Below are positions 51,306 to 63,310 of a stretch of DNA of 64,000 nt, piece by piece; within the stretch, counting starts at the first letter, position 1, and the number at the start of each line of letters is the position of its first letter. The translations under genes were made by a program, and so were the position numbers. The notes under the pieces are model-generated. The model saw only the letters and a program-made list of their open reading frames with translations, was not told the origin of the DNA and ran no database searches. The stretch comes from an uncultured Maribacter sp. GTDB taxonomy: Bacteria > Bacteroidota > Bacteroidia > Flavobacteriales > Flavobacteriaceae. The stretch covers positions 558,001 through 622,000 of the forward strand of contig CANLTE010000002.1 in assembly GCA_947493885.1 (NCBI GenBank), in the 5' to 3' direction.

Positions 51306-51609
51306 AAGGTGTTAAAAAGTTAAAATAACAAGAAGGAATTGATTAACCATGTGGTTGGATTATTAAATTCAATTTATAACCATCTATTTAAATGTATTAG
51401 CGGCTACCCAAGGTATTATTAATTAATTAAGATTGCGGAGACCAAACTTACCTCGACTTAATTTTATGGTTTTGACAATGAATTTAAACAAGTGTTATTA
51501 AAACTTATAAAAGTATACTTCTCCAATGAACAACCAGTAATTTGGTAAAGTTTCGTCTATAAATGACCTTTTAGATTTATGTTTTGAAGACAGAATTTAT
51601 GTTAAAAAT
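51306..51609. other. Intergenic stretch before the alginate locus, no gene seen
   Basis: I see no coding frame, RNA gene or strong hairpin between the amidohydrolase stop and the PL7 promoter. It marks the left border of the polysaccharide utilisation locus. Confidence 0.45.
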
Positions 51610-51639
51610 TTGTGAGTCTTATAATAATGTGTAATTTTG
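51610..51639 (+). promoter_or_regulatory. Promoter of the PL7-kdgF-SDR operon
   Basis: TTG at 51610-51612, a 19-bp spacer and TAATTTTG at 51632-51639 match the Bacteroidota consensus. The last bases of the -7 box are the first bases of the predicted GntR operator, so bound repressor would block the promoter. Confidence 0.65.
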
Positions 51640-51664
51640 GTAAACCAAACTGGTTAACCAGTTT
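51636..51664. promoter_or_regulatory. Predicted GntR operator 1 (PL7 operon)
   Basis: Two overlapping palindromes: TTTGGTAAACCAAA (51636-51649) and the perfect 18-bp AAACTGGTTAACCAGTTT (51647-51664). The core resembles the TTGGTATACCAA-type sites of FadR-subfamily hexuronate regulators such as UxuR/ExuR, as I recall them. The site recurs in front of susC and the gntR gene. Confidence 0.75.
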
Positions 51665-51826
51665 AAATTAACATGTACTTTTAGATTTCAACATGTGTCT
51701 TTATTTTATCTATAATAGCATACCTGTTTTGTAAGTACGTTTTCAGTATATAAGAGTTTACTGTATTGTTAAAAAAGTTGAAACTAGAATTATTATTACT
51801 GATATATAACCAACAAAATATATAAT

Positions 51827-53881
51827 ATGAACTTTAAAGTATTCAAGTCAGTTTTTGTCCATTATCTTTTAATGCTGAGTGTCATTTTGTTGTTTAATTG
51901 CCGTGCGGAAAGCAAAAAACAAAGTTCTAATAGCAAAACAGAAAAGGAAGTACTAGCACTTAAGGCAAATGATGTAATACCATTTTTTAAACATTGGAAT
52001 TTAATCTTAGGAGACGGTACTAATGTGGGTCAAGCAACTAACTACGAGAACAAAAACTTCTTTTATACTAAAACCGATACTAAAGGGGATTGGGTGGTAT
52101 TTAAAACCCCAAATGCAGGGAATACTCATGGGACCTCTAATAACACAAGAACTGAACTGGCTCAATTAAAAAAGTGGTCACCGATGACCAAAGCTAATAT
52201 GAATGCTACACTTAAAGTAATGAATGTTTCAACTACAGGTGATGCTCGTGTTGCTTCAACATATTCGGTGGTAGTTGGTCAGATTCATAGTGCAGATGGG
52301 CATGAAAACGAACCACTTAAAATATTTTACAAAAAATTTCCTAATCATAAAAAGGGTTCTGTCTTTTGGAATTATGAAATCAATACTGCAGGTGATGATA
52401 ATTCAAAAAGATGGGATTATTCTTATCCAATTTGGGGCTATGACTTTTCTGTTGTTGGTTCTAGTGAAAATACTTTTCCGCCAGAGCCTAAAGATGGAAT
52501 TTCCATAGGAGAAGAGTTTAGTTATAAAGTTGAAATCAAGGATGGTATAATGAGTCTTACATTCACTAGTGATGGGCATGAGACCAAAACATTTACCAAA
52601 AATCTGGTTTCTTCAGAGTATGGAGAACGTTCAAAAATTCCGTCACAAGTCAAGGAGTTATTTGTACCAATAGGGCAGGATGGCTTGGAACGTAAGAACG
52701 CCTATACTAATGAGGGTCTTTTTTTTAAATTAGGAACTTACAACCAGACAAACGGAAAAGACCCTAAAGTAAATAAAGTTTGGTGTTCTGGAGCAGAAAC
52801 CCATGGAGGTGATATTCAAAAACAATATGCCGATGGTAACTACGCAGAGGTTTGGTTTAAAACAGCAAACATTACTATTAGTGCTGATGCCATATCCAAT
52901 GCTGGATACTTCGAAGCTAATGATGGCTTAAGTACAAAAACGGTTTATCCAAGTGAGGTGATTCCATTTATGGATAAATTTAAAATATTGATGGGTGATG
53001 GAACAAATGTGGAAAATCTTCTGGACTTTGAGCATAAGGATTTTTTCTATACTGTAATTGATGGTACAAGACGTTGGGTAGTATATAAAACACCAAATTC
53101 TGGTGTTACTTCAAAAAACTCTAGCAATACAAGAACAGAGTTACATGAAAAAAGAGAATGGATTCCTGAAGAAGGAGGTAAACTAACTGGAACTTGTAAG
53201 GTTATGCAGGTCTCCATTTCTGGTGATGCTAGAGTTGCAGCATCTTATGCAACCGTGGTTGGACAAATTCATAGTGGTGAGGGGCACGAAAATGAACCTC
53301 TGAAAATATTTTACAAGAAGTTTCCAGGTCATAAAAAAGGGTCCGTTTTCTGGAATTATGAAATTAATACTGCAGGTAATGATAATTCTAAGAGATGGGA
53401 TTTTTCTACCGCCGTTTGGGGGCATGATATGTCAGTTGTTGGAGCAAGTAAAAATGACTATCCAGATGAGCCAGAAGATGGCATAGAATTAGGTGAAGAG
53501 TTTAGTTATGAGGTAAACGTATATAAGGGTATAATGTATCTTACTTTTAAAAGTGATAATCATGAAACGCAAACATTTACTAAAAATCTTATTTCATCCG
53601 AATATATAAAAAAAACTGACCTTCCCGAACAAGTAAGAAAACTATTCGTGCCTATAGAACAAGATGGAATTGAACGTGCCACTGCCTATAGTGGAGAGTT
53701 AAATTATTTTAAACAGGGTGCATATAATCAAACCAATGGAAAAAGCCCTGAAACAAATATAGTTTGGTGTGCAGGAGCAGAAACCTATGGAGGTGATATC
53801 GCTAAACAATTTGAAAATGGTTGTTATACCGAAGTATGGTTTAGAGAAGCAACTGTGGGGCCAGCAACGCCCCCAAAATAA
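51827..53881 (+). CDS. Alginate lyase lipoprotein with two tandem PL7 modules
   Basis: The 684-residue product has a signal peptide and lipobox (LLFNCRAES, cysteine 25), so it is membrane anchored, likely at the outer membrane. Two homologous PL7 jelly rolls follow, residues about 49-347 and 378-676, offset by about 329. Each has the three PL7 catalytic motifs: R-T-E-L (108-111; 436-439), Q-I-H (152-154; 480-482) and the YNQ motif (305-307 in FFKLGTYNQ; 633-635 in YFKQGAYNQ). Both look intact. A linker of about 30 residues joins them. PL7 lyases cut alginate by beta-elimination, leaving unsaturated ends. kdgF, SDR and susCD downstream agree with this. A related polyuronate cannot be excluded. 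Confidence 0.92.
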   Translation: MNFKVFKSVFVHYLLMLSVILLFNCRAESKKQSSNSKTEKEVLALKANDVIPFFKHWNLILGDGTNVGQATNYENKNFFYTKTDTKGDWVVFKTPNAGNTHGTSNNTRTELAQLKKWSPMTKANMNATLKVMNVSTTGDARVASTYSVVVGQIHSADGHENEPLKIFYKKFPNHKKGSVFWNYEINTAGDDNSKRWDYSYPIWGYDFSVVGSSENTFPPEPKDGISIGEEFSYKVEIKDGIMSLTFTSDGHETKTFTKNLVSSEYGERSKIPSQVKELFVPIGQDGLERKNAYTNEGLFFKLGTYNQTNGKDPKVNKVWCSGAETHGGDIQKQYADGNYAEVWFKTANITISADAISNAGYFEANDGLSTKTVYPSEVIPFMDKFKILMGDGTNVENLLDFEHKDFFYTVIDGTRRWVVYKTPNSGVTSKNSSNTRTELHEKREWIPEEGGKLTGTCKVMQVSISGDARVAASYATVVGQIHSGEGHENEPLKIFYKKFPGHKKGSVFWNYEINTAGNDNSKRWDFSTAVWGHDMSVVGASKNDYPDEPEDGIELGEEFSYEVNVYKGIMYLTFKSDNHETQTFTKNLISSEYIKKTDLPEQVRKLFVPIEQDGIERATAYSGELNYFKQGAYNQTNGKSPETNIVWCAGAETYGGDIAKQFENGCYTEVWFREATVGPATPPK

Positions 53882-53927
53882 ACAAATAGCGGGCACATAT
53901 TTTATAACTAATTAACAATAATATCAT

Positions 53928-54278
53928 ATGGAAACATTTGGAGCAAGTAAGGAGTTTATCCTGGATGAGGATTTAGAATGGGAAACCGTAGGCGAAGGGG
54001 TAAAGCGAAAAATAATGGGTTATGATGATAAAATTATGTTGGTAAAAGTACATTTCAATGAAGGAGGTATTGGCTACAAGCATGAGCATTACCATTCTCA
54101 AGTTACCTATGTAGAAAGTGGAGAATTTGAATTTTCGATTGGTGAGCAAACTAAAATTGTAAAGGGAGGAGATACCGTTTACATTCCACCTCATGCGCTA
54201 CATGGGGCTATTTGTACTAAGGAAGGAATTTTAATTGATGTGTTTAGCCCAATTAGAGAAGATTTTATGACTAAATAA
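53928..54278 (+). CDS. kdgF: KdgF-type cupin, unsaturated uronate linearisation
   Basis: The 116-residue single cupin has the metal-binding pattern H52-x-H54-x3-Q58 (KHEHYHSQ) and the late H92 (PPHALHG) of KdgF. That enzyme opens 4,5-unsaturated monouronates to the linear ketouronate (DEH). Position between a PL7 lyase and an SDR reductase fits that step exactly. No signal peptide, so it acts in the cytoplasm. It lies 46 bp after the lyase and 6 bp before the SDR gene. Confidence 0.88.
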   Translation: METFGASKEFILDEDLEWETVGEGVKRKIMGYDDKIMLVKVHFNEGGIGYKHEHYHSQVTYVESGEFEFSIGEQTKIVKGGDTVYIPPHALHGAICTKEGILIDVFSPIREDFMTK

Positions 54279-54284
54279 TATGTT

Positions 54285-55037
54285 ATGGATTTAAAAGGGA
54301 AGGTTGCCATCGTTACCGGTGGAACAAGAGATATCGGAAGAGCAATAAGTGTAAAGCTGGCAAAAGAAGGTGCGAAAGTGGTCGCCAATTACTTCAATAA
54401 CGAAGACAACGCCCAAGAAACTCTGAAAGCTATTGAAGCTGTTGGAGGAATAGGTATTATCGTCAAAGGAGATATGACCCAAAAAACCGATGTTGACAAT
54501 TTGATTAAAGAAACAACAACCGCCTTTGGAGACAATATTGATATTGTAATTAATAATGCCGGAGGTTTAGTTGCAAGAAAAAATATATCCGAAATGGATG
54601 AGGCTTTTTTTAATAAGGTTATGTTCTTAAATCTGAACTCAACTTTTTTGGTTTCTCAAGCAGCTCTGCCGCATATGGGTTCTGGAAGCTCTATTGTAAA
54701 CATTGCTTCGCAAGCGGGTAGAGATGGTGGTGGAGGTGGTTCCTTGGCATATGCAACGTCAAAAGGTGCGGTTATGACTTTTACTCGAGGATTAGCTAAA
54801 GAAGTAGGGCCAAAAAACATTAGAGTAAACTCCTTGTGTCCAGGTATGATTGCAACCAAATTTCATGACGATTTTACAAAACATGAGGTACGTAAAAAAG
54901 TAGAAGGTATGACCCCACTTCGCAGACAAGGTTCTGCAGAAGAAATTGCAAATACAGTAGCTTGTTTAGCTTCATCGGAAACATCATTTATTACCGGAGC
55001 AAATGTGGATATTAATGGAGGCTTAGCTTTTTCCTAA
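54285..55037 (+). CDS. SDR-family oxidoreductase, candidate DEH reductase
   Basis: The 250-residue protein is a classical short-chain dehydrogenase: NAD(P) motif VTGGTRDIGRA (Asp instead of Gly at one position of TGxxxGIG), NNAGG, active-site Ser region IVNIASQAGRDGG, and Y-x-x-x-K in AYATSK. In an alginate locus after kdgF the expected job is reduction of DEH to 2-keto-3-deoxygluconate. A KduD-like dehydrogenase role is the alternative. Only 6 bp separate it from kdgF. Confidence 0.85.
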   Translation: MDLKGKVAIVTGGTRDIGRAISVKLAKEGAKVVANYFNNEDNAQETLKAIEAVGGIGIIVKGDMTQKTDVDNLIKETTTAFGDNIDIVINNAGGLVARKNISEMDEAFFNKVMFLNLNSTFLVSQAALPHMGSGSSIVNIASQAGRDGGGGGSLAYATSKGAVMTFTRGLAKEVGPKNIRVNSLCPGMIATKFHDDFTKHEVRKKVEGMTPLRRQGSAEEIANTVACLASSETSFITGANVDINGGLAFS

Positions 55038-55135
55038 AAGTAAATTTTCTCAATACATTTGTAACTAACTGTAAAATAATTATTTACAAAACCACAATTT
55101 TTTTGAATTAATTTTTATTTAACAAAATAATAACA

Positions 55136-55143
55136 TATATTTG
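55136..55143 (+). promoter_or_regulatory. -7 box for susCD
   Basis: TATATTTG matches TAnnTTTG and its last four bases are the beginning of GntR operator 2, as for the PL7 operon. A TTG is present 30 bp upstream (55103-55105), too far for the normal spacing, so the -33 element is weak or absent. Confidence 0.55.
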
Positions 55144-55164
55144 GTAAACCAAATTGGTTAACCA
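55140..55164. promoter_or_regulatory. Predicted GntR operator 2 (susCD)
   Basis: TTTGGTAAACCAAA at 55140-55153, then TGGTTAACCA at 55155-55164. Over 27 bp it differs from operator 1 at a single position. A further half-site-like TGGAAAACCA follows at about 55168. Confidence 0.75.
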
Positions 55165-55465
55165 GTATGGAAAACCAATTAAAGTTTACTTAATCTTTCT
55201 AACTCTAATCCAATATTTTTAATATGAAACTATAAAATCAAAACACAAAAAAAGGACGGGTGCACGCCCATCCTTTTCAATTAGATTACTTCATTCTGAA
55301 GGGAAGTAATACCCACATGATACCGTAGATATCATATTCTGTAAAATTACAACAAAGAATTGATTTTAGAATACGTGTCTTCGGCTAATTTCATTTAACG
55401 TGTGTTAGCGTGTTATATGTGAAAAATAAAATTGACTAACTTATTTTAACTAAAATTTAAATTTT
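55165..55465 (+). other. Long structured leader of susC
   Basis: If transcription starts just after the -7 box, the susC leader is about 300 nt. It contains a terminator-like hairpin (55250-55277) and an inverted repeat ATTACTTC/GAAGTAAT (55285-55310). No coding frame is seen. The layout could allow attenuation or post-transcriptional control. Confidence 0.5.
55250..55277 (+). terminator. Terminator-like hairpin in the susC leader
   Basis: Arms AAAAGGACGGG and CCCATCCTTTT with one mismatch and a 6-nt loop, with a short T run. It lies between the operator and susC. It may end transcripts from the SDR gene, 213 bp upstream, or attenuate susC. Confidence 0.55.
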
Positions 55466-58400
55466 ATGAAGATTACGTTATTAAAAAAGCTGTTGTTGTT
55501 TGGGGCATTTAGTTGTTGCTCAGCGATATCGGCTCAAACGATATCTGGTAATGTTACTGATTCTAGTGGCCCATTACCGGGTGCAAGTGTTGTGGTTAAA
55601 GGAACCACAAACGGTACCCAAACCGATTTTGATGGAAATTATACTCTTGACAATGTTGATGACGCTGCTATTTTGGTGTTTAGCTATATTGGCTTTACCA
55701 CCCAAGAGATTCTGGTAAATGGGCAAAGCTCCATAGATGTTACTCTTATAGAAGATAGAGCGCAGCTTGAAGAAGTAGTTGTCATAGGTTATGGTACACG
55801 AAAAAAATCATCCTTGACCGGTGCAGTAGCCAAAGTGGGAGGAGATGATATTGCTGCGATTCAGGCAACTCGTGTAGATGATGCATTAGCAGGTAAGTTA
55901 CCTGGGGTTTTGATTCAAAATCAAGATGGTTCACCTGGAGCAGACCCCAAGATTCAAATTAGGGCGGCTTCTTCTATTTCTGGAGACTCAAATCCATTAA
56001 TTGTTGTGGACGGATATCCTATCTCGGGAAGCTTGGCAACAGTTAACCCTAATGATATTCAAAGTTTAGAAGTGTTGAAAGATGCTGCTTCGGCTGCTAT
56101 TTACGGTTCTAGGGGAGCAAATGGAGTTATATTGGTAACGACCAAAAAAGGAAAACAAGGCAAAGCAAGTTTTAGTTACAACACCTACATAAGTACTTCG
56201 AGCAAGTATCGCGACAATATACTTGCTTCAGGTCCAGAGTGGGCTGCTATTTCAAGAACTGAAATTGCTGCTGGTAATTGGGACCTATCTCAAATAGACT
56301 CAGATTTTGTTGAATATCGATTAAATGCCTATGAAAATTCACCTGGGGCTATAAGCCCAGAAGACTGGCTCTTTAGAAATGGAAGTATTATGAGTCATGA
56401 CTTTAGTGTCAGTGGAGGCAACAAGGATGTAAATTATTTTGCTTCCATTGGTTACCAAAACTCTGAAGGTGTTATTATTACTGAAGGTTTTGAGAGGTTA
56501 AATGCACGTTTGAACGTGGATGCAAAGTTGGGCGAGAAATTTAGGGCTGGAGTTAGCTTTAATGGATTTACTTCCCATCGAGATATGCTAGGACACGACA
56601 TGAGAGACCTTCTAAGAGCATATGGTGTTCATCCAGTTTACCATACGGAAGAATCTATAGCATTTGTTCAGCAATTGGATCAACAAGCACAGGCATTAGG
56701 ACTTGCAGCCTTTGATAATGGCTATAGAGGCTCTACTTATGAAGCAAGTAGTATTTATGAATTAGAACCCGGTATGTCGGCACAAGATTGGCATTATGGT
56801 AGAGCAAATAATGGTATTGGAGGATCTGGCGATGCTGGTCCTGCAACGAAGTTGGACAATACCGAACGATGGCAAAAGACCTTTTTTGGTAACGTGAGCT
56901 CATATTTACAATATGAAATTATTGACGGGTTGAATATAAAAACCGTTTTAGGTGGGGATCTTAGGGATACACAATTTTACGAACATAGATTACTCGGGTT
57001 TGATTCAAGAGCCAGAACCTCTCAAACTTATATGAGACAAACAGATTTAAAAGTATCTTCGGTATTGAGTGAAACTACATTAAATTATACCAAAACATTA
57101 GGTAAACATGATATATCTGCAGTAGCTGGTATAGAGTTTCAAACTACCAAATTTATAGGAACTGCCTTAAATGGTGCAAACGTTCCCGATACTGAAATTC
57201 AGAATTTCAACTTATTTAATCCTGCCGATATTACAGTAACAGAGAGAGATGAAACGAGAGTAAGAGAAAGTATTTTTGGAAGAATCAACTACGCTTATGA
57301 CGACCGCTTTTTGTTCTCAGCTTCATTGAGAAGAGATGGAGATTCTCGTTTTGGCGCTAATAAAAGATATGAAACATTTCCAGCACTTTCCGTTGGTTGG
57401 AATTTGCATAATGAAACTTTTTGGAAACCTATTTCAGAAGTTGTTAGCACCTTTAAGCCGAGATTTAGTACAGGGTCTTTAGGAACCACATCTTTCTTAG
57501 GGTCATATGATGCATTGAGTCTTTTGGAACCTCAAGCTACGGTTTATGGAACAGGATTTTTAATTCCAGATAATGTGGCAAATCCAAATTTGACTTGGCA
57601 AACAAATACAGAGACGAATTATGGTATTGATTTAGGACTATTTAATAATAGAATTCGATTGAGCGTGGATTACTATACATCAGATATCGAAGACATCTTA
57701 ATTAATCAAAGTGTTTCTGAAGTATTAGGTACTACGTCTATAGTTCTCAATTCAGGAGACGTAAGAAGCTCTGGTTTGGAGTTTGAGTTAAATGCGATAG
57801 TATTGAATAGTGATGATTTTTCTTGGAGTCTTGGAGCTAACCTATCTACTGTTCAAACAGAAATAACAGATTTAGGAGGCCTTAACGAATTACCACAAAC
57901 CATTTACGGACAAAGTGGTAGAGGTCCCGTGTTTAGAAATTACGTTGGCGGTGAAATTGGTGAAATGTGGGGATTGGAAACTATTGGAGATGTTGAACCC
58001 ATATACTTAGAAGATGGTACAAGACACCCTAACAATGTAAGTGGAGAATCATATGTTGTAGATCAAAACAATGATGGTGTAATTGACAGAACTAGAACAG
58101 TTGAAGATGGTGGAGACCTGGTGAAAATAGGACAAAATACACCAGATTTTTATTGGGGCTTAAATAGTTCAATGAATTATAAAGATTTTGACTTGTCTTT
58201 TCAATTTCAAGGATCGCAAGGGGGTGAAGTTTATAACATAGACCCTCTTTACTATAACTCACAATGGAGTGGTAGACTGGTTGATAGTTTTGATGCCAAT
58301 GACGATGGCATTGCAGATAATAATGGAGAGTTTTATACTGGTAATAGAAATCAAACCGATGCAACCATACAAGATGCCTCTTATTTGGCATTAAGAAACT

Positions 58401-58639
58401 TAACGCTGGGTTATACTTTTAATTCAGATGTAACTAATAAGATAGGCTTAAATTCTGTTAGAATATATGGTGCTGCTACGAACTTGTTATACATATGGGG
58501 AGATAATTATACCTCTTATAATCCTGAAGGTGTTGAGATTACCAATTCAGGTTATTTAGGACCAACAACATATGGAGTGCAAGTAGGAGCAAGCCCAATT
58601 GTTAGAAGCTTTACGCTTGGTTTAAATGTTAATTTTTAA
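55466..58639 (+). CDS. SusC-like TonB-dependent receptor
   Basis: The 1057-residue outer-membrane importer has a signal peptide ending at SAQ (24), a carboxypeptidase-regulatory-like domain (25-95; SGPLPGASVVVKGTTNGTQT), the SusC box LEEVVVIGYG (101-110), a plug domain with GSRGANGVILVTTKKG, and a 22-strand barrel ending in SFTLGLNVNF. It works with the SusD-like lipoprotein encoded 10 bp downstream and takes up oligosaccharides using TonB energy. Placement beside PL7 lyase and KdgF points to alginate oligomers. Confidence 0.95.
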   Translation: MKITLLKKLLLFGAFSCCSAISAQTISGNVTDSSGPLPGASVVVKGTTNGTQTDFDGNYTLDNVDDAAILVFSYIGFTTQEILVNGQSSIDVTLIEDRAQLEEVVVIGYGTRKKSSLTGAVAKVGGDDIAAIQATRVDDALAGKLPGVLIQNQDGSPGADPKIQIRAASSISGDSNPLIVVDGYPISGSLATVNPNDIQSLEVLKDAASAAIYGSRGANGVILVTTKKGKQGKASFSYNTYISTSSKYRDNILASGPEWAAISRTEIAAGNWDLSQIDSDFVEYRLNAYENSPGAISPEDWLFRNGSIMSHDFSVSGGNKDVNYFASIGYQNSEGVIITEGFERLNARLNVDAKLGEKFRAGVSFNGFTSHRDMLGHDMRDLLRAYGVHPVYHTEESIAFVQQLDQQAQALGLAAFDNGYRGSTYEASSIYELEPGMSAQDWHYGRANNGIGGSGDAGPATKLDNTERWQKTFFGNVSSYLQYEIIDGLNIKTVLGGDLRDTQFYEHRLLGFDSRARTSQTYMRQTDLKVSSVLSETTLNYTKTLGKHDISAVAGIEFQTTKFIGTALNGANVPDTEIQNFNLFNPADITVTERDETRVRESIFGRINYAYDDRFLFSASLRRDGDSRFGANKRYETFPALSVGWNLHNETFWKPISEVVSTFKPRFSTGSLGTTSFLGSYDALSLLEPQATVYGTGFLIPDNVANPNLTWQTNTETNYGIDLGLFNNRIRLSVDYYTSDIEDILINQSVSEVLGTTSIVLNSGDVRSSGLEFELNAIVLNSDDFSWSLGANLSTVQTEITDLGGLNELPQTIYGQSGRGPVFRNYVGGEIGEMWGLETIGDVEPIYLEDGTRHPNNVSGESYVVDQNNDGVIDRTRTVEDGGDLVKIGQNTPDFYWGLNSSMNYKDFDLSFQFQGSQGGEVYNIDPLYYNSQWSGRLVDSFDANDDGIADNNGEFYTGNRNQTDATIQDASYLALRNLTLGYTFNSDVTNKIGLNSVRIYGAATNLLYIWGDNYTSYNPEGVEITNSGYLGPTTYGVQVGASPIVRSFTLGLNVNF

Positions 58640-58649
58640 TTCGGAAAAA

Positions 58650-59993
58650 ATGAAAAAAATATATTTAGTATTAGCATCATTGTTGTTCATAACGGCATGT
58701 GATAGTGATTTGGATCAATTTCCACCTAACATCGCCAATGCAGATTCTTTAACCGATTTCGGAGGGGTTTTAAACGCCGCCTATTATTACCAGTTAGGGG
58801 GTGTTACTCCAATGGCGGTTATGGGTGAATTTAGAGCCGACAATGCTTTAATGGATGAAGAACCTTATCCAGCATTTGATAGGTATAATAGTGATTTGAC
58901 AGATATGGAAGATCAATTTTTTGGACCTTTTTATACAGCAATGTATAAGTCAATTTTGAGTTCAAATAATGTCATTGAAAATTCTACGGACGCTGGGGAA
59001 ATTGGGGAGGCAAAATTTTTAAGAGCTTTGTCATACTTTAAGTTAGTTCAGGTGTTTGGCGATGTTACTATTAACTTATCTTCCGCACCTAGTTTAACAG
59101 ATACATCTATTTTAGTAAGGCAACCAGCGGCAGATGTTTATAGTCAAGTTATTATTCCAGATTTAACAGATGCTATTGCTGCTTTAGGTGTTGAAATAGT
59201 AGACGGAAGAGCATCTAAATTGGCAGCCCAAGGTCTTTTAGGAAAAGTATATGCAACTCTAGGTAATTTTAGTAGTGCAGAAACGCAATTGGCAGCTGTT
59301 GTAAACGCAGCAGCAGCATCTGGCGTTAGTTTGAAAGATAATTTTAATGAGATTTTTGGTGCCGCCAATGAGGATGGAAATTCTGAAATTATTTATGCAA
59401 CCCAAATATCAAGCTCTATAGTAGATGAGTACACTTTTGGTTCTGATTTCTGGAATTGGTATGTGGGAGATGATTCAAAATCGGATTTTCCCGTGGATCC
59501 AGATTTAGTTGCTGCTTTTGATGCAGTGGCTAATGATACATTAGTAGGAGGAGATTTAAGAAGAGCGGTAACACTTACTCCTGAAGGTACAACAGCTATA
59601 AAGTTTCCTAAAGACGGAGGTCTAGGGGCTGAACATGATTGGATAGAGATAAGATTGGCCGATGTTATATTGTTATATGCAGAAGCTTTGAATGAGAATG
59701 GGGCATCTGCTGCAGAAGTGCTTGGACTGCTAGATTCTATACGAATGAGGGCAGGATTAAATCCTTTGGATCCGGTTGCACTGAATACGCAAGCTTTAGT
59801 AAGACAAGCTATTCTTGACGAAAGAAGACTAGAATTGGCATTTGAAGGACATAGATGGTTTGATCTTGTAAGAACAGGAACTGTTGATGCCGAAATGGGA
59901 GAAACTATTAATAGTAATTATCATGTGTTTCCTGTTCCTGTTTCTGAAATTCTTGCTAGCGACGCGGTAATTTCTCAAAATCCTGGGTATTAA
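58650..59993 (+). CDS. SusD-like surface lipoprotein
   Basis: I start at the ATG at 58650 (MKKIYLVLASLLFITAC); the longer frame overlaps susC. The lipobox cysteine is residue 17. At 447 residues it is shorter than many SusD proteins (500-600). Features: FLRALSYFKLVQVFGDV, the TPR-like helices, RLADVILLYAEALNENG and the C-terminal RRLELAFEGHRWFDLVRTG motif typical of the SusD/RagB family. It binds substrate on the cell surface and caps the SusC channel. Confidence 0.94.
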   Translation: MKKIYLVLASLLFITACDSDLDQFPPNIANADSLTDFGGVLNAAYYYQLGGVTPMAVMGEFRADNALMDEEPYPAFDRYNSDLTDMEDQFFGPFYTAMYKSILSSNNVIENSTDAGEIGEAKFLRALSYFKLVQVFGDVTINLSSAPSLTDTSILVRQPAADVYSQVIIPDLTDAIAALGVEIVDGRASKLAAQGLLGKVYATLGNFSSAETQLAAVVNAAAASGVSLKDNFNEIFGAANEDGNSEIIYATQISSSIVDEYTFGSDFWNWYVGDDSKSDFPVDPDLVAAFDAVANDTLVGGDLRRAVTLTPEGTTAIKFPKDGGLGAEHDWIEIRLADVILLYAEALNENGASAAEVLGLLDSIRMRAGLNPLDPVALNTQALVRQAILDERRLELAFEGHRWFDLVRTGTVDAEMGETINSNYHVFPVPVSEILASDAVISQNPGY

Positions 59994-60043
59994 AAAGTTA
60001 GTTTTTCAATTGAATTGTTTGAGTTATTTATTTTTGAAGGATT

Positions 60044-60075
60044 TACCGACCAGCCCTCAGGTCGGTAGGTTTTCA
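60044..60075 (+). terminator. Terminator after susD
   Basis: Arms TACCGACC and GGTCGGTA (8 bp, GC-rich), an 8-nt loop and a short T run, 51 bp after the susD stop. Confidence 0.75.
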
Positions 60076-60154
60076 AAATCACTTAGAAACCCTATGTACA
60101 CGATGTTTAAAATAAAATAAAATACTTTTTTTAGTAAAGTATTTTGCTTAGTTT

Positions 60155-60182
60155 TAACAAACCAATCTGGTTAACCAATTTG
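60155..60182. promoter_or_regulatory. Predicted GntR operator 3 (gntR gene)
   Basis: The TGGTTAACCA core (60168-60177) is preceded by AACAAACCAAT, which matches the upstream half of the other two sites with mismatches. It lies 20 bp before the regulator's start, consistent with autoregulation. The -7-like TAGTTTTA (60149-60156) overlaps it but departs from consensus in the last base. Confidence 0.7.
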
Positions 60183-60202
60183 AGTAAATGTTATAATCGC
60201 CT

Positions 60203-60904
60203 ATGAAAATCGAAATTCTCACAAGAAACGAAAATCAGGAAATCCAAAACGAAATAATATCCAAAATTCGGGATTTAATGAATTATAAAAATCTTGAGCC
60301 AGGCGACAAGCTTCCTTCGGAGCGCATGCTTTCTGAAAAATTTGGGGTTAGTAGAAGTAATGTTCGCGAAGCTATTCACAAATTAGAGTTTTATGGTTTA
60401 TTAAAATCCAAACCTCAAAGTGGCACTTTTGTGGCAGATATTGGTCAGGTCGCTATGAATGGTATGATTGAAGATATTCTAAGATTGGAAGATCCCGATT
60501 TTAAGTCCTTGGTTGAGACTAGAATTTTACTTGAACTAAAAACTGTGAGACTAGCAGCACAAAGAAGAACCGAACAGGATTTAATTCAGATGAAGATGGC
60601 CTTGGAAGCTTATAGCGAAAAGGTCAAAGCTGGTCAAGACGCTGTTCAGGAGGATCTTCTTTTTCATTTAGCAATCGCAAAAGCAAGTGGAAACAGTACA
60701 ATGAATACTTTTATGCTAATCATTACTCCCGAGATTATTACCAAATTTGAAGAACATCATGTGTGTGATAAAGGCTTGGCATTCACAGGGATTCAAGAAC
60801 ACTGGGATATTTTTGATGCTATTAAGGCTCAAGACCCCCAGTTGGCAAAGCAGAAAATGAAGACACATTTTAAAACTCTGTATCAATATTGCTATAACAT
60901 TTAG
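60203..60904 (+). CDS. FadR-subfamily GntR transcriptional regulator
   Basis: The 233-residue protein has an N-terminal winged helix (about 20-80; LPSERMLSEKFGVSRSNVRE is the core, followed by the SGTFV wing) and a C-terminal FCD domain (about 95-228), with the DLLFHLAIAKASGN and GIQEHWDIFDAIKAQD segments that carry the metal/ligand histidines. FCD regulators often respond to sugar acids. Three copies of a FadR-type palindrome in the locus are its probable sites; the effector is perhaps KDG or DEH, which is inference. Confidence 0.92.
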   Translation: MKIEILTRNENQEIQNEIISKIRDLMNYKNLEPGDKLPSERMLSEKFGVSRSNVREAIHKLEFYGLLKSKPQSGTFVADIGQVAMNGMIEDILRLEDPDFKSLVETRILLELKTVRLAAQRRTEQDLIQMKMALEAYSEKVKAGQDAVQEDLLFHLAIAKASGNSTMNTFMLIITPEIITKFEEHHVCDKGLAFTGIQEHWDIFDAIKAQDPQLAKQKMKTHFKTLYQYCYNI

Positions 60905-61000
60905 AATCTATACCTAAAAGATAAAAATGCACGATTTTGTCTTTATGGTTAAAATATAAGAAGGGAATTAGTACTTAAAATTTGACTTTACAAATTTGGC

Positions 61001-61026
61001 AGTAATTGAGCATCATTGTAATTACT
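61001..61026. repeat. Short inverted repeat upstream of the MFS gene
   Basis: AGTAATT (61001-61007) and AATTACT (61020-61026) with a 12-nt spacer. It is unlike the GntR sites. It may be an operator or chance in AT-rich DNA. Confidence 0.3.
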
Positions 61027-61140
61027 ACAAGAAATTTTTTAGCTAGAATTTAAGTATAAATGTATACACAGGCATAGCGCTTGGAGGTTTACTATTGTCT
61101 ATTCGAGATAATGAATATTTGAATAATCAAATTAAAAAGT

Positions 61141-62445
61141 ATGAAAGTCAAAAGGTTAAGGTGGGGAGTTATAGGTTTAATAGCTCTTGCAACGGTCATC
61201 AACTATATAGATAGACAAGCGTTACCAGTTTTATGGCCTGACATGGCTGAAGAATTGTATCCAGATAAAACGGCCGATGAGCGAAAAGGAATTTATGCTT
61301 TAATCTCTACGTTTTTTATATTTTCTTATGCTTTTGGTCAAGCTATTTTTGGGAAAATTTTCGATAAAGTTGGAACAAGATTGGGCTTTGCACTTTCGAT
61401 TGGTTTTTGGTCAATTGCCACCGCCTTACATGCTTTTGCAAAAGGTGTGGTAAGCCTTACTATTTTCCGTTCTTTATTAGGTGTTTCTGAAGCAGGAAAC
61501 TGGCCAGGAGCAGCAAAAGGAAATGCAGAATGGTTTCCTACTAAAGAACGAGCCTTCGCGCAAGGGATTTTTAATTCAGGAGCAGCTATTGGTGGAATCA
61601 TAGCCTTTCCTACAATAGGAATATTATCCGTTTATTTAAGTTGGCAATATATATTCATTGCCGTTGGTGTAGTAGGATTATTATGGCTTATTCCGTGGTG
61701 GATTATAGTAAAATCCCCTCCCTCGAAACACCCATGGATAACCAAAGAAGAACGCGAGTATATCTTAACAGGACAGCGGAACCAAGACGTAGATAAGGAT
61801 GGCGAATTTGATGAAGGGTACAATCCTGATACTAGTAAATTACTAAGTCATAAAGAAAGTTGGGGAGTTATTATCGCCTCCGCTGCCATTGACCCAATTT
61901 GGTGGTTGTTTATCTTTTGGATACCCATTTACTTAAATGAGGTTTATGGTATGGATGTAAAAGCAATTGGCTTTTATGCTTGGGTGCCTTATGTAGGAGC
62001 AATGATTGGAGCATGGTTTGGAGGTCTTTTGGCTCAGAATCGCATCAAAGCAGGTTGGACGGTGAACAAAACTCGTAAGTTGGTAATCACACTTGGCTGT
62101 TTGATTATGCTGCCTACTTTATTGGCAATGGCAAATCCAGGAGGACCTGAAACTGCTGTAATATTAATGGCTGTTATATTATTTGGTTTTCAAATAGCCA
62201 TAGGTAACGTGCAGACGTTACCGAGCGATTTGTTTGGCGGAAAATCAGTAGGGACACTTGCAGGATTTGCAGGCATGGCAGCTAAGTTAGGAGCTTTTGG
62301 ATTAACTGCATTAGTGCCTTGGCTTACATCAGGAGGTAACTATACACCAGCTTTTGTAATTGGTGCAGCATTAGCAATAATAGCAATAGCGAGTATATGG
62401 ATATTATGTCCGAAAATTGAACCGCTAAAAAGTAAAATAAATTAG
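61141..62445 (+). CDS. ExuT-like MFS hexuronate transporter
   Basis: The 434-residue inner-membrane protein has 12 hydrophobic segments of the ACS family: LATVINYIDRQALPVLWP in TM1, FGKIFDKVGTRLGFALS in loop 2-3, and SLLGVSEAGNWPGAAKGNAEWFP, the stretch shared with hexuronate and galactarate transporters. In this locus it would import monouronates, DEH or KDG. The next SDR gene follows 17 bp after its stop. Confidence 0.92.
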   Translation: MKVKRLRWGVIGLIALATVINYIDRQALPVLWPDMAEELYPDKTADERKGIYALISTFFIFSYAFGQAIFGKIFDKVGTRLGFALSIGFWSIATALHAFAKGVVSLTIFRSLLGVSEAGNWPGAAKGNAEWFPTKERAFAQGIFNSGAAIGGIIAFPTIGILSVYLSWQYIFIAVGVVGLLWLIPWWIIVKSPPSKHPWITKEEREYILTGQRNQDVDKDGEFDEGYNPDTSKLLSHKESWGVIIASAAIDPIWWLFIFWIPIYLNEVYGMDVKAIGFYAWVPYVGAMIGAWFGGLLAQNRIKAGWTVNKTRKLVITLGCLIMLPTLLAMANPGGPETAVILMAVILFGFQIAIGNVQTLPSDLFGGKSVGTLAGFAGMAAKLGAFGLTALVPWLTSGGNYTPAFVIGAALAIIAIASIWILCPKIEPLKSKIN

Positions 62446-62462
62446 ATTAAAATTAGTATAAT

Positions 62463-63224
62463 ATGAGTTCTAAGGAAAAAATAGCAGTAGTAACAGGAGC
62501 AACCGGAGGTATTGGTTTTGAAGTTTCGAAAAGATTAGGAAATGAAGGATATACAGTAGTTTTAAACGGCGTTGAAGAAGAGAAAGGAATTATTAGAGTT
62601 AAAGAGCTTACTGCTGAAGGAATTACTGCTGAATATCGCGGTTTTGATGTTACAAACGAAGAGGCTGTAACTTCAAACATTAAAGCAATAGGAGAGAAGT
62701 ACGGAAGAATTGATGTTCTTGTAAACAATGCGGGGGGATTAGGTGGAAGATCTAGATTTGAAGAAATGACCACCGAATTTTACAGATTTGTAATGGCATT
62801 AAATTTAGATTCTGTTTTTTTCGCTTCAAGAGCTGCAATTCCTTTCCTAAAAAAGGGTGAACATCCTTCGATAATTAACTATACGTCAAATGCCGGGTGG
62901 ACAGCTGGTGGACCTGGAGCAGGAATCTACGGAACATCCAAAGCTGGTGTTCACGCAATAACCAGGGCATTAGCGAAAGATTTAGCAGAATATGGAATTA
63001 GGGTAAATGCAGTATCTCCAGGTACAATTGATACACCTTTTCATGCACAAATTAAAGCTACTAAACCTGAGGTTTTTGCTTCTTGGGCAAATAACATAAT
63101 GTTAGGAAGGTTAGGTCAACCCGAAGATGTCGCTAGTGTGGTTTCTTTTCTTGCGAGTAAAGATGCCTCATTCATTACAGCTGAAACTATTCAAATCGGT
63201 GGAGGTCAAGCTTTAGGAATCTAA
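62463..63224 (+). CDS. SDR-family oxidoreductase, second in the locus
   Basis: The 253-residue classical SDR has TGATGGIG, NNAGG, and Y-x-x-x-K in YGTSKAG with Ser in NYTSNAGW. It is clearly distinct from the SDR at 54.3 kb: it keeps the normal GIG motif and has a different substrate-binding loop. It may be the DEH reductase, with the other SDR doing an oxidation, or the reverse. It lies directly after the MFS gene, in one operon. Confidence 0.85.
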   Translation: MSSKEKIAVVTGATGGIGFEVSKRLGNEGYTVVLNGVEEEKGIIRVKELTAEGITAEYRGFDVTNEEAVTSNIKAIGEKYGRIDVLVNNAGGLGGRSRFEEMTTEFYRFVMALNLDSVFFASRAAIPFLKKGEHPSIINYTSNAGWTAGGPGAGIYGTSKAGVHAITRALAKDLAEYGIRVNAVSPGTIDTPFHAQIKATKPEVFASWANNIMLGRLGQPEDVASVVSFLASKDASFITAETIQIGGGQALGI

Positions 63225-63310
63225 ACTTATGTTGATAAAGGTTTTTAAGGAACTAGAAGCTAAAGTTCGTTAAGCATTATAATATTATTTCCAATTTCAA
63301 ATAGTAATTT

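What the first reader, a model, noticed from the sequence alone, without database searches (positions are those of the whole stretch)
51610..60182. Three matching GntR operators, two overlapping the -7 box, define a compact polyuronate regulon
TTTGGTAAACCAAA-Y-TGGTTAACCAGT occurs before the PL7 operon (51636-51664) and before susC (55140-55164) with one difference in 27 bp. A third copy with the same TGGTTAACCA core precedes the GntR gene (60155-60182). In the first two, the TTTG of the -7 box is the beginning of the operator, which predicts direct repression. The site resembles the palindromes of FadR-subfamily hexuronate regulators. The MFS operon has no copy, so it would be regulated differently.
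Basis: partly seen in the sequence, partly recalled or inferred. Interest (0 to 1): 0.75.

Follow-up and report, generated by a model that had tools for sequence, protein, structure and literature searches.

The report
Alginate operon operators plus antisense RNA
A bacterium's alginate-eating genes carry a known type of repressor switch, and opposite the uptake-pump gene's leader lies a small RNA gene, conserved in many relatives, that is predicted to act as a second lock.

Summary
Each 27-bp box is two TGGT-NN-ACCA palindromes 13 bp apart. Exact tandem pairs occur nowhere else in the 3.84-Mb assembly. In the window and 79 related loci, exact copies within 60 bp of each other lie only 13, 26 or 39 bp apart; 98 of 105 distinct arrays start exactly on the -7 box TAnnTTTG. 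This matches AusR, the GntR repressor of alginate genes in Zobellia, which binds single, double or triple operators.

The susC leader showed something I found in no paper searched and not in Rfam: a conserved ~91-nt RNA gene on the opposite strand (55337-55247) with a -7-like box, three predicted hairpins and a U7 terminator. Its model finds 80 places in 78 of 397 family genomes at E up to 1e-6. Of 72 places outside the training contigs, 68 lie beside an operator array and 68 opposite a susC leader. It resembles Bacteroides DonS-type PUL antisense RNAs. Expression and function are untested.

The parts
51609..51612 (+). TTTG, -33 element of the PL7 promoter (19-bp spacer to the -7 box)
   Evidence: sequence; TTG at a 19-bp spacer in 38 of 105 arrays of relatives
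51632..51639 (+). -7 box TAATTTTG of the PL7 operon
51638..51647 (.). operator copy 1, PL7
51651..51660 (.). operator copy 2, PL7
51827..53881 (+). alginate lyase with two PL7 domains
   Evidence: PF08787, 2 stretches, E 1.7e-95; both PF08787 matches of the genome lie in this gene
53928..54278 (+). cupin protein (KdgF-like role inferred)
   Evidence: PF07883
54285..55037 (+). SDR oxidoreductase
   Evidence: PF13561
55136..55143 (+). -7 box TATATTTG of susC
55142..55151 (.). operator copy 1, susC
55155..55164 (.). operator copy 2, susC
55178..55465 (+). susC 5' leader downstream of the operators (288 nt)
55342..55349 (-). predicted -7 box of the antisense RNA (TAATTTTA, 5 of 6)
   Evidence: exact TAnnTTTG on this strand in 43 of 55 distinct leader regions, the window's not among them
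55247..55337 (-). predicted antisense RNA, about 91 nt, three hairpins, ends in U7
55315..55337 (-). 5' hairpin of the RNA
   Evidence: fold of this sequence only; not part of the consensus structure
55286..55309 (-). middle hairpin with C-rich loop
55250..55277 (-). terminator hairpin of the RNA; U-run at 55247-55253
55466..58639 (+). SusC-type outer-membrane importer
   Evidence: TIGR04056 770 bits
58626..59993 (+). SusD-type surface lipoprotein
   Evidence: PF07980
60149..60156 (+). -7-like TAGTTTTA of gntR
60155..60164 (.). degenerate operator copy, gntR
   Evidence: 3 mismatches over the pair, a level that chance also reaches
60168..60177 (.). operator copy, gntR
60203..60904 (+). GntR/FadR-subfamily repressor, AusR-like
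   Evidence: PF00392 + PF07729
61141..62445 (+). MFS transporter, no operator
62463..63224 (+). SDR oxidoreductase (DEH reductase role inferred)

Best explanation
This is an alginate-utilisation locus (substrate inferred from PL7 and from the gene content of relatives) under two controls. First, the GntR/FadR-subfamily protein at 60203 (AusR-like) represses PL7, susC and its own gene by binding 13-bp-phased tandem palindromes that begin on the -7 box and run over the expected start site. An alginate breakdown product would release it. Second, a ~91-nt RNA is transcribed from the opposite strand of the susC leader. It pairs with that leader, probably starting between the C-rich loop of the RNA and the matching G-rich loop of the leader, and lowers susC expression from leaky transcription. 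Shown: sites, phasing, register, gene content, conservation and strand-specific structure of the RNA. Inferred: repression, effector, transcription of the RNA, and its effect on susC.
For: Operators: exact tandem pairs only here in the genome. In the window plus 79 relatives, 129 of 129 exact pairs within 60 bp are at 13, 26 or 39 bp. TAnnTTTG is in register in 98 of 105 distinct arrays, against 0 or 1 at ten other registers. Of 113 arrays in relatives, 72 precede susC, 10 gntR, 8 PL7, 6 MFS and 17 other genes; ten of these other genes were scanned: 3 PL17-like, 1 PL6, 2 PL7, 4 none of these. RNA: first hairpin in 56 of 73 susC leaders; T-run longer on the minus side in 53 of 56. Minus-strand TAnnTTTG in 43 of 55 regions, plus strand 0 of 55; 300 shuffles, mean 5.3, maximum 13. 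One terminator pair is standard in 51 of 52 on the minus strand but 14 of 52 on the plus. A second set of 68 shows 8 pairs with both-sided changes, 0 of 500 shuffles. Context in new genomes: 68 of 72 beside arrays, 68 of 72 opposite susC, 65 both.
Against: No expression or binding data. In the window the antisense -7 box is 5 of 6. No TTG at 18-20 bp precedes the minus-strand box in the 43 relatives that have it (2 at 17 bp). The RNA hairpin is missing from 17 of 73 susC leaders, though model R1 later found one of them (L053, E 1.1e-6). The plus strand also folds better than shuffles (mean z -4.0 against -5.0). Three of 8 genomes of the genus lack the tandem operator at 1 mismatch. 20 of 79 gntR genes of relatives lack a copy with at most 1 mismatch within 150 bp upstream. 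The degenerate copy before gntR is not above chance by sequence alone (control). E-values of R1 are rough.
Confidence: 0.8

Rival explanations
1. The conserved leader element works on the sense strand, as an attenuator or stability element of susC mRNA, and the minus strand is silent.
For: It lies inside the susC 5' leader; the sense strand of the element also folds better than shuffles (mean z -4.0); the first hairpin is followed by about 4 T on the sense side.
Against: The window's whole sense leader is not unusually stable (z -1.38, 18 of 200 shuffles at least as good). Wobble pairs fit the minus strand better (51 against 14 of 52 at one pair; 1190 against 1119 of 1219 cells on a model-fitted alignment). 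T-run longer on the minus side in 53 of 56. The -7 box is on the minus strand, 43 against 0 of 55 and 53 against 1 of 72 new loci.
Confidence: 0.12
2. The antisense RNA acts mainly in trans, its C-rich loop pairing with other mRNAs, and the antisense position is incidental.
For: 42 of 52 middle loops begin with CCU or UCU. Bacteroides FopS sRNAs repress susC mRNAs in trans (PMC11697453 passages).
Against: The place opposite the susC leader is kept in 68 of 72 new places, also where SusC is only 32-40% identical to the window's; 80 strong places in 78 genomes, so nearly always one copy.
Confidence: 0.15
3. The operators serve a different regulator than the neighbouring GntR gene.
For: 20 of 79 relatives have no close copy before gntR.
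Against: Same kind of regulator, same kind of genes and the same single, double or triple operator arrangement as reported for AusR in Zobellia (PMC7874173 passage); GT-N2-AC fits the FadR subfamily.
Confidence: 0.04

Closest known systems
AusR alginate-utilisation repressor of Zobellia galactanivorans (Dudek et al. 2020; primary paper not held, known from passages in PMC7874173, PMC8286568, PMC8073546)
   Same: GntR family, encoded in the alginate PUL, represses most alginate genes through single, double or triple operators, released by alginate breakdown products
   Different: The locus here has one double-domain PL7 gene; PL6 scores in this genome are marginal (25.1 bits over 53 positions, cut-off 24, and 19.9). 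Identity to AusR and its exact operator were not compared. One near relative carries 8 copies. The passages I read mention no antisense RNA; the primary paper I could not read.
DonS family of cis-antisense RNAs of Bacteroides PULs (Cao et al. 2016; primary paper not held, passages of PMC7366714 and PMC10994844 read)
   Same: Short RNA (78-128 nt there, about 91 here) on the strand opposite a susC homologue of a PUL
   Different: A different lineage (Flavobacteriaceae), alginate PUL, tied to AusR-type operators, with its own conserved sequence and structure; repression not shown. No sequence comparison with DonS was possible.
UxuR and other FadR-subfamily regulators with 2-nt spacing (PMC4494728 passages)
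   Same: GT-N2-AC palindrome
   Different: 13-bp-phased tandem arrays; the protein scores far under the UxuR and ExuR models; that survey lists 0 Bacteroidetes among its FadR-subfamily regulators

Membership tests
AusR-type alginate repressor | GntR helix-turn-helix plus FCD effector domain (FadR subfamily) | tested here: met
   Asp151, His155, His200 and His222 stand where FCD metal ligands are recalled to be (positions; the ligand rule is recalled)
AusR-type alginate repressor | encoded inside an alginate PUL | tested here: met
   PL7, SusC/D, MFS and SDR neighbours
AusR-type alginate repressor | operators in single, double or triple copies at promoters of alginate genes | tested here: met
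   identity with the Zobellia operator letters not compared
AusR-type alginate repressor | orthology and identity to Zobellia AusR | not testable with these tools
   no Zobellia record named among the loci obtained; primary paper not held
AusR-type alginate repressor | binding and release by an alginate intermediate | not testable with these tools
   needs experiment
UxuR/ExuR hexuronate regulators | score over the NCBIfam cut-off | tested here: not met
   71.7 bits against 442 (UxuR) and 68.3 against 396 (ExuR)
UxuR/ExuR hexuronate regulators | TGGT..ACCA palindrome with 2-nt GT..AC spacing (UxuR) | tested here: met
   sequence; spacing of UxuR from PMC4494728 passages
DonS-type PUL antisense RNA | short RNA gene opposite the susC 5' region | tested here: met
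   as a predicted gene: position and structure; transcription not shown
DonS-type PUL antisense RNA | own promoter and terminator | tested here: inconclusive
   -7 box and U-run conserved, but no -33 element at the usual spacing and no transcript data
DonS-type PUL antisense RNA | negative effect on susC | not testable with these tools
   needs experiment
DonS-type PUL antisense RNA | sequence kinship with DonS | not tested
   DonS sequence not held; no Rfam family matched window 51500-63300 at E up to 1

The most novel reading that the evidence does not exclude
Many Flavobacteriaceae carry a dedicated antisense RNA family, unknown to Rfam, that gives the alginate importer a second, post-transcriptional lock. 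AusR arrays sit on the start site of susC, while an unrepressed antisense promoter about 200 bp downstream makes an RNA that meets leaky susC mRNA through a loop-loop contact. This sets a threshold for switching on alginate uptake.
Probability: 0.5. Interest if true: 0.75.

Novelty: new variant of a known kind. Interest (0 to 1): 0.6.

Why it matters
The operators extend a known marine PUL repressor and show its grammar in relatives: 13-bp phasing, register on the -7 box, and 2 to 8 copies. The RNA, if transcribed, would be a conserved antisense RNA family tied to an algal-polysaccharide PUL; I found no report of one in the searches. It would suggest that the Bacteroides habit of guarding susC with antisense RNA also exists in Flavobacteriaceae, where it may tune how fast kelp carbon is used. 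Both layers can be tested in culturable strains.

Tried and rejected
Sense-strand attenuator and leader peptide: the attenuator is kept as a rival; a leader peptide I set aside by eye because the frame through the hairpins is not kept between the leaders printed (no formal test). Rfam: no match at E up to 1 for 51500-63300. One search (12-mer, 2 mismatches) gave 955 + 926 hits against 933 + 926 for the control, so it says nothing, and its list omits the exact window sites that one search shows; it was not used. Plasmid records gave only relatives under 60% identity and PDB only distant GntR proteins (best E 4.6e-19); neither helped. Four or more copies in one strict pattern: 1 of 397 family genomes, so long arrays are rare. 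Searches count a neighbour as a copy with up to 2 of 8 mismatches beside at least one exact copy, and take arrays of two or more copies; 75 of 79 loci had one. One search used 111 of the 113 arrays (40 bp upstream needed), 105 after removing duplicates. In one search I dropped 3 near-identical leader sequences, and also L085 (weak), leaving 52 of 56. In one search, 55 of 79 relatives and the window match on the RNA strand at E up to 1.1e-6, L085 weakly; the opposite strand of the same places echoes at 27-38 bits, and one stray hit lies elsewhere (L038, E 0.025). Matches with E above about 1e-4 are doubtful, some being such echoes. Of its 91 rows with E up to 1.2e-4, 88 were examined; left out were the own genome, G128, and an opposite-strand echo in G293. 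One search was wrong: I turned 17 minus-strand loci the wrong way; one search repeats it correctly. Of its 88 loci, 16 share a contig length with the training loci and were set apart (all 16 have array and SusC); close kin of training species may remain among the 72. Of the 72, 3 had SusC but no array by the criterion (L151 has copies 26 bp apart; L220 and L221 have none), 3 had an array but gntR and no SusC, 1 had neither. Alignment A2 used 68 of the 72 (E cut) and is fitted to the model. The phylum search found 12 of 395 genomes at E up to 0.001; the 7 with E below 1e-6 all belong to the window's family, and 4 weak ones lie outside it. Paper searches cover only openly licensed papers; I saw their listings and, of PMC7366714, PMC11697453, PMC10994844 and PMC9723704, passages.
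Full report
1. The sites are real. Sequence confirms the stated boxes. TGGTTAACCA occurs three times in the window, all here (shuffle mean 0.15, 0 of 100 reach 3). Genome-wide (3.84 Mb, 52 contigs), the tandem pattern TGGTNNACCA-N3-TGGTNNACCA occurs without mismatch only before PL7 (51638-51660) and susC (55142-55164). The only 1-mismatch hit overlaps the susC pair and reveals a third copy, TGGAAAACCA at 55168-55177. The gntR site appears at 3 mismatches, beside seven unrelated places with as many; the reversed control pattern has 22 hits per strand against 11, so at that level the sequence alone proves nothing. Single 10-mers are not rare either: TGGTTAACCA 6 places, control 10; TGGTNAACCA 44 hits, control 66. 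Those 44 hits are 38 places, 5 in this locus; of the other 33, 32 lie inside open frames and one (L117) does not. The pattern does not cover every middle dinucleotide.

2. Grammar of the operator. I fetched 79 loci around relatives of the GntR protein (the best 80 of 110 candidates). In these and the window, exact TGGT-N2-ACCA copies within 60 bp of each other lie 13 (101 pairs), 26 (26) or 39 bp (2) apart and at no other spacing. TGGT-N2-ACCA occurs 307 times in the 79 loci, against 28-55 for the other five spacers tried. Of 105 distinct arrays, 98 have TAnnTTTG in one register, its last TG being the first TG of the operator; ten other registers give 0 or 1. Before susC, counting neighbours with up to 2 mismatches, there are 2 copies in 28, 3 in 38, 4 in 5 and 8 in 1 of 72. 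In 8 genomes of the genus, 5 have a tandem at 1 mismatch and 3 have none. In the window the first copy spans about -6 to +4 if the -7 box lies at -12 to -5 (PMC9723704 passages), so direct repression is a fair inference.

3. What it controls. Pfam gives a two-domain PL7 lyase, cupin, SDR, SusC, SusD, GntR+FCD, MFS and SDR (SusC also by NCBIfam). In relatives, 113 arrays precede susC 72 times, gntR 10, PL7 8, MFS 6 and other genes 17. Ten genes of the last group were scanned: 3 PL17-like (Pfam Hepar_II_III_C plus Alginate_lyase; the PL17 name is recalled), 1 PL6-like, 2 PL7, 3 with a secretion-tail domain, 1 LTD. A copy with at most 1 mismatch stands within 150 bp before gntR in 59 of 79. Both PL7 matches of the genome are in this one gene; PL6 scores are marginal (25.1 bits with cut-off 24, and 19.9).

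4. Known counterpart. AusR of Zobellia galactanivorans is a GntR repressor of most alginate genes (PMC8286568 passage; PMC8073546), binding single, double or triple operators and released by metabolic intermediates (PMC7874173). The primary paper was not held. The locus therefore looks like a new member of that kind. The 2-nt spacing fits UxuR and similar regulators, not ExuR (PMC4494728 passages); the protein itself is under every NCBIfam cut-off shown, LldR scoring best.

5. The RNA in the susC leader. The leader downstream of the operators is 288 nt. It contains a hairpin (55250-55277) and a second one (55286-55309) that recur in relatives: the first is in 56 of 73 susC leaders, and each occurs once in the window. 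The first is single-copy in the genome at up to 2 mismatches. Leaders with it are 160-314 nt, those without 5-212 nt.

6. Which strand. (a) The T-run next to the first hairpin is longer on the minus side in 53 of 56, mean 6.9 against 4.1. (b) TAnnTTTG lies upstream on the minus strand in 43 of 55 distinct regions and on the plus strand in none; 300 dinucleotide shuffles gave mean 5.3, maximum 13. (c) In a sequence-only alignment of 52, one terminator pair is U.G, U-A or C-G in 51 of 52 on the minus strand but standard in 14 of 52 on the plus. (d) The minus strand folds more stably in 45 of 52; the window RNA gives -31.9 against -22.1 kcal/mol, with three hairpins. (e) The two-hairpin structure is kept in 98.2% of cells, with slid controls at 43-65%. 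Against: no TTG at 18-20 bp on the minus strand, the window's own -7 box is TAATTTTA, and the plus strand also folds better than shuffles (mean z -4.0 against -5.0).

7. Distribution. Model R1 (rough E-values) matches 117 of 397 genomes of the family at E up to 0.01, and 80 places in 78 genomes at E up to 1e-6 (my count of the rows, own genome included). In 395 genomes across the phylum, 12 match at E up to 0.001, and the 7 with E below 1e-6 are all in this family. Of these 72, 65 have both an operator array upstream and a SusC gene downstream on the opposite strand, 3 an array and gntR instead, 3 SusC without an array by the criterion used, and 1 neither. In the same 72, TAnnTTTG stands on the RNA strand in 53 and on the other in 1. 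SusC identity to the window's goes down to 31-32%. A second alignment of 68 of the 72 shows 8 pairs changed on both sides (0 of 500 shuffles); the RNA strand is better paired than its complement, 1190 against 1119 of 1219 cells. That alignment is fitted to the model, which leans it towards the structure.

8. Mechanism. Repression by the GntR protein at the start site is the first lock. The RNA covers roughly +100 to +190 of the susC mRNA and is fully complementary to it. In 42 of 52 sequences the middle loop starts with CCU or UCU, so the sense leader shows a G-rich loop; a loop-loop contact as in plasmid copy control (recalled: CopA/CopT) is a natural first step. Bacteroides PULs have such antisense RNAs: DonS (78-128 nt, negative for susC; PMC7366714 passages) and 32 PUL-associated ones in B. 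thetaiotaomicron (PMC10994844 passages). FopS RNAs repress susC in trans (PMC11697453 passages). I infer that this RNA mops up leaky susC mRNA when alginate is absent; nothing here tests that.

9. Novelty. Operators: known kind. RNA: a new variant of a known kind. It is not in Rfam at E up to 1, and the searches listed no paper that I could see to be about it; they cover openly licensed papers only, and I read passages, not whole papers.

Noticed in passing
L024:4875-4975: A close relative (uncultured Maribacter, isolate 515-3Z) has 8 operator copies before susC, two exact and six identical TGGAAAACCA units; it looks like tandem duplication of the third copy.
   Followed up: partly
   Followed up: no
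L220, L221: Weaker relatives of the RNA lie before a SusC gene without any operator array, so similar RNAs may serve other PULs.
   Followed up: no
window 55224-55235: A three-codon frame ATGAAACTATAA stands just upstream of the hairpins in the susC leader; some relatives have a similar ATGAAA mini-frame (seen by eye).
   Followed up: no
window 51827-53881: One gene encodes two PL7 lyase domains and holds both PL7 matches of the genome.
   Followed up: partly
L082:3056-4456: An operator pair lies next to a frame on the other strand that looks like uronate isomerase (name recalled from its sequence, not scanned).
   Followed up: no
G000:C3:243955 (L117): The only TGGTNAACCA place outside this locus that is not in an open frame of 80 aa or more; its neighbours, listed, were not identified by any scan.
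   Followed up: partly
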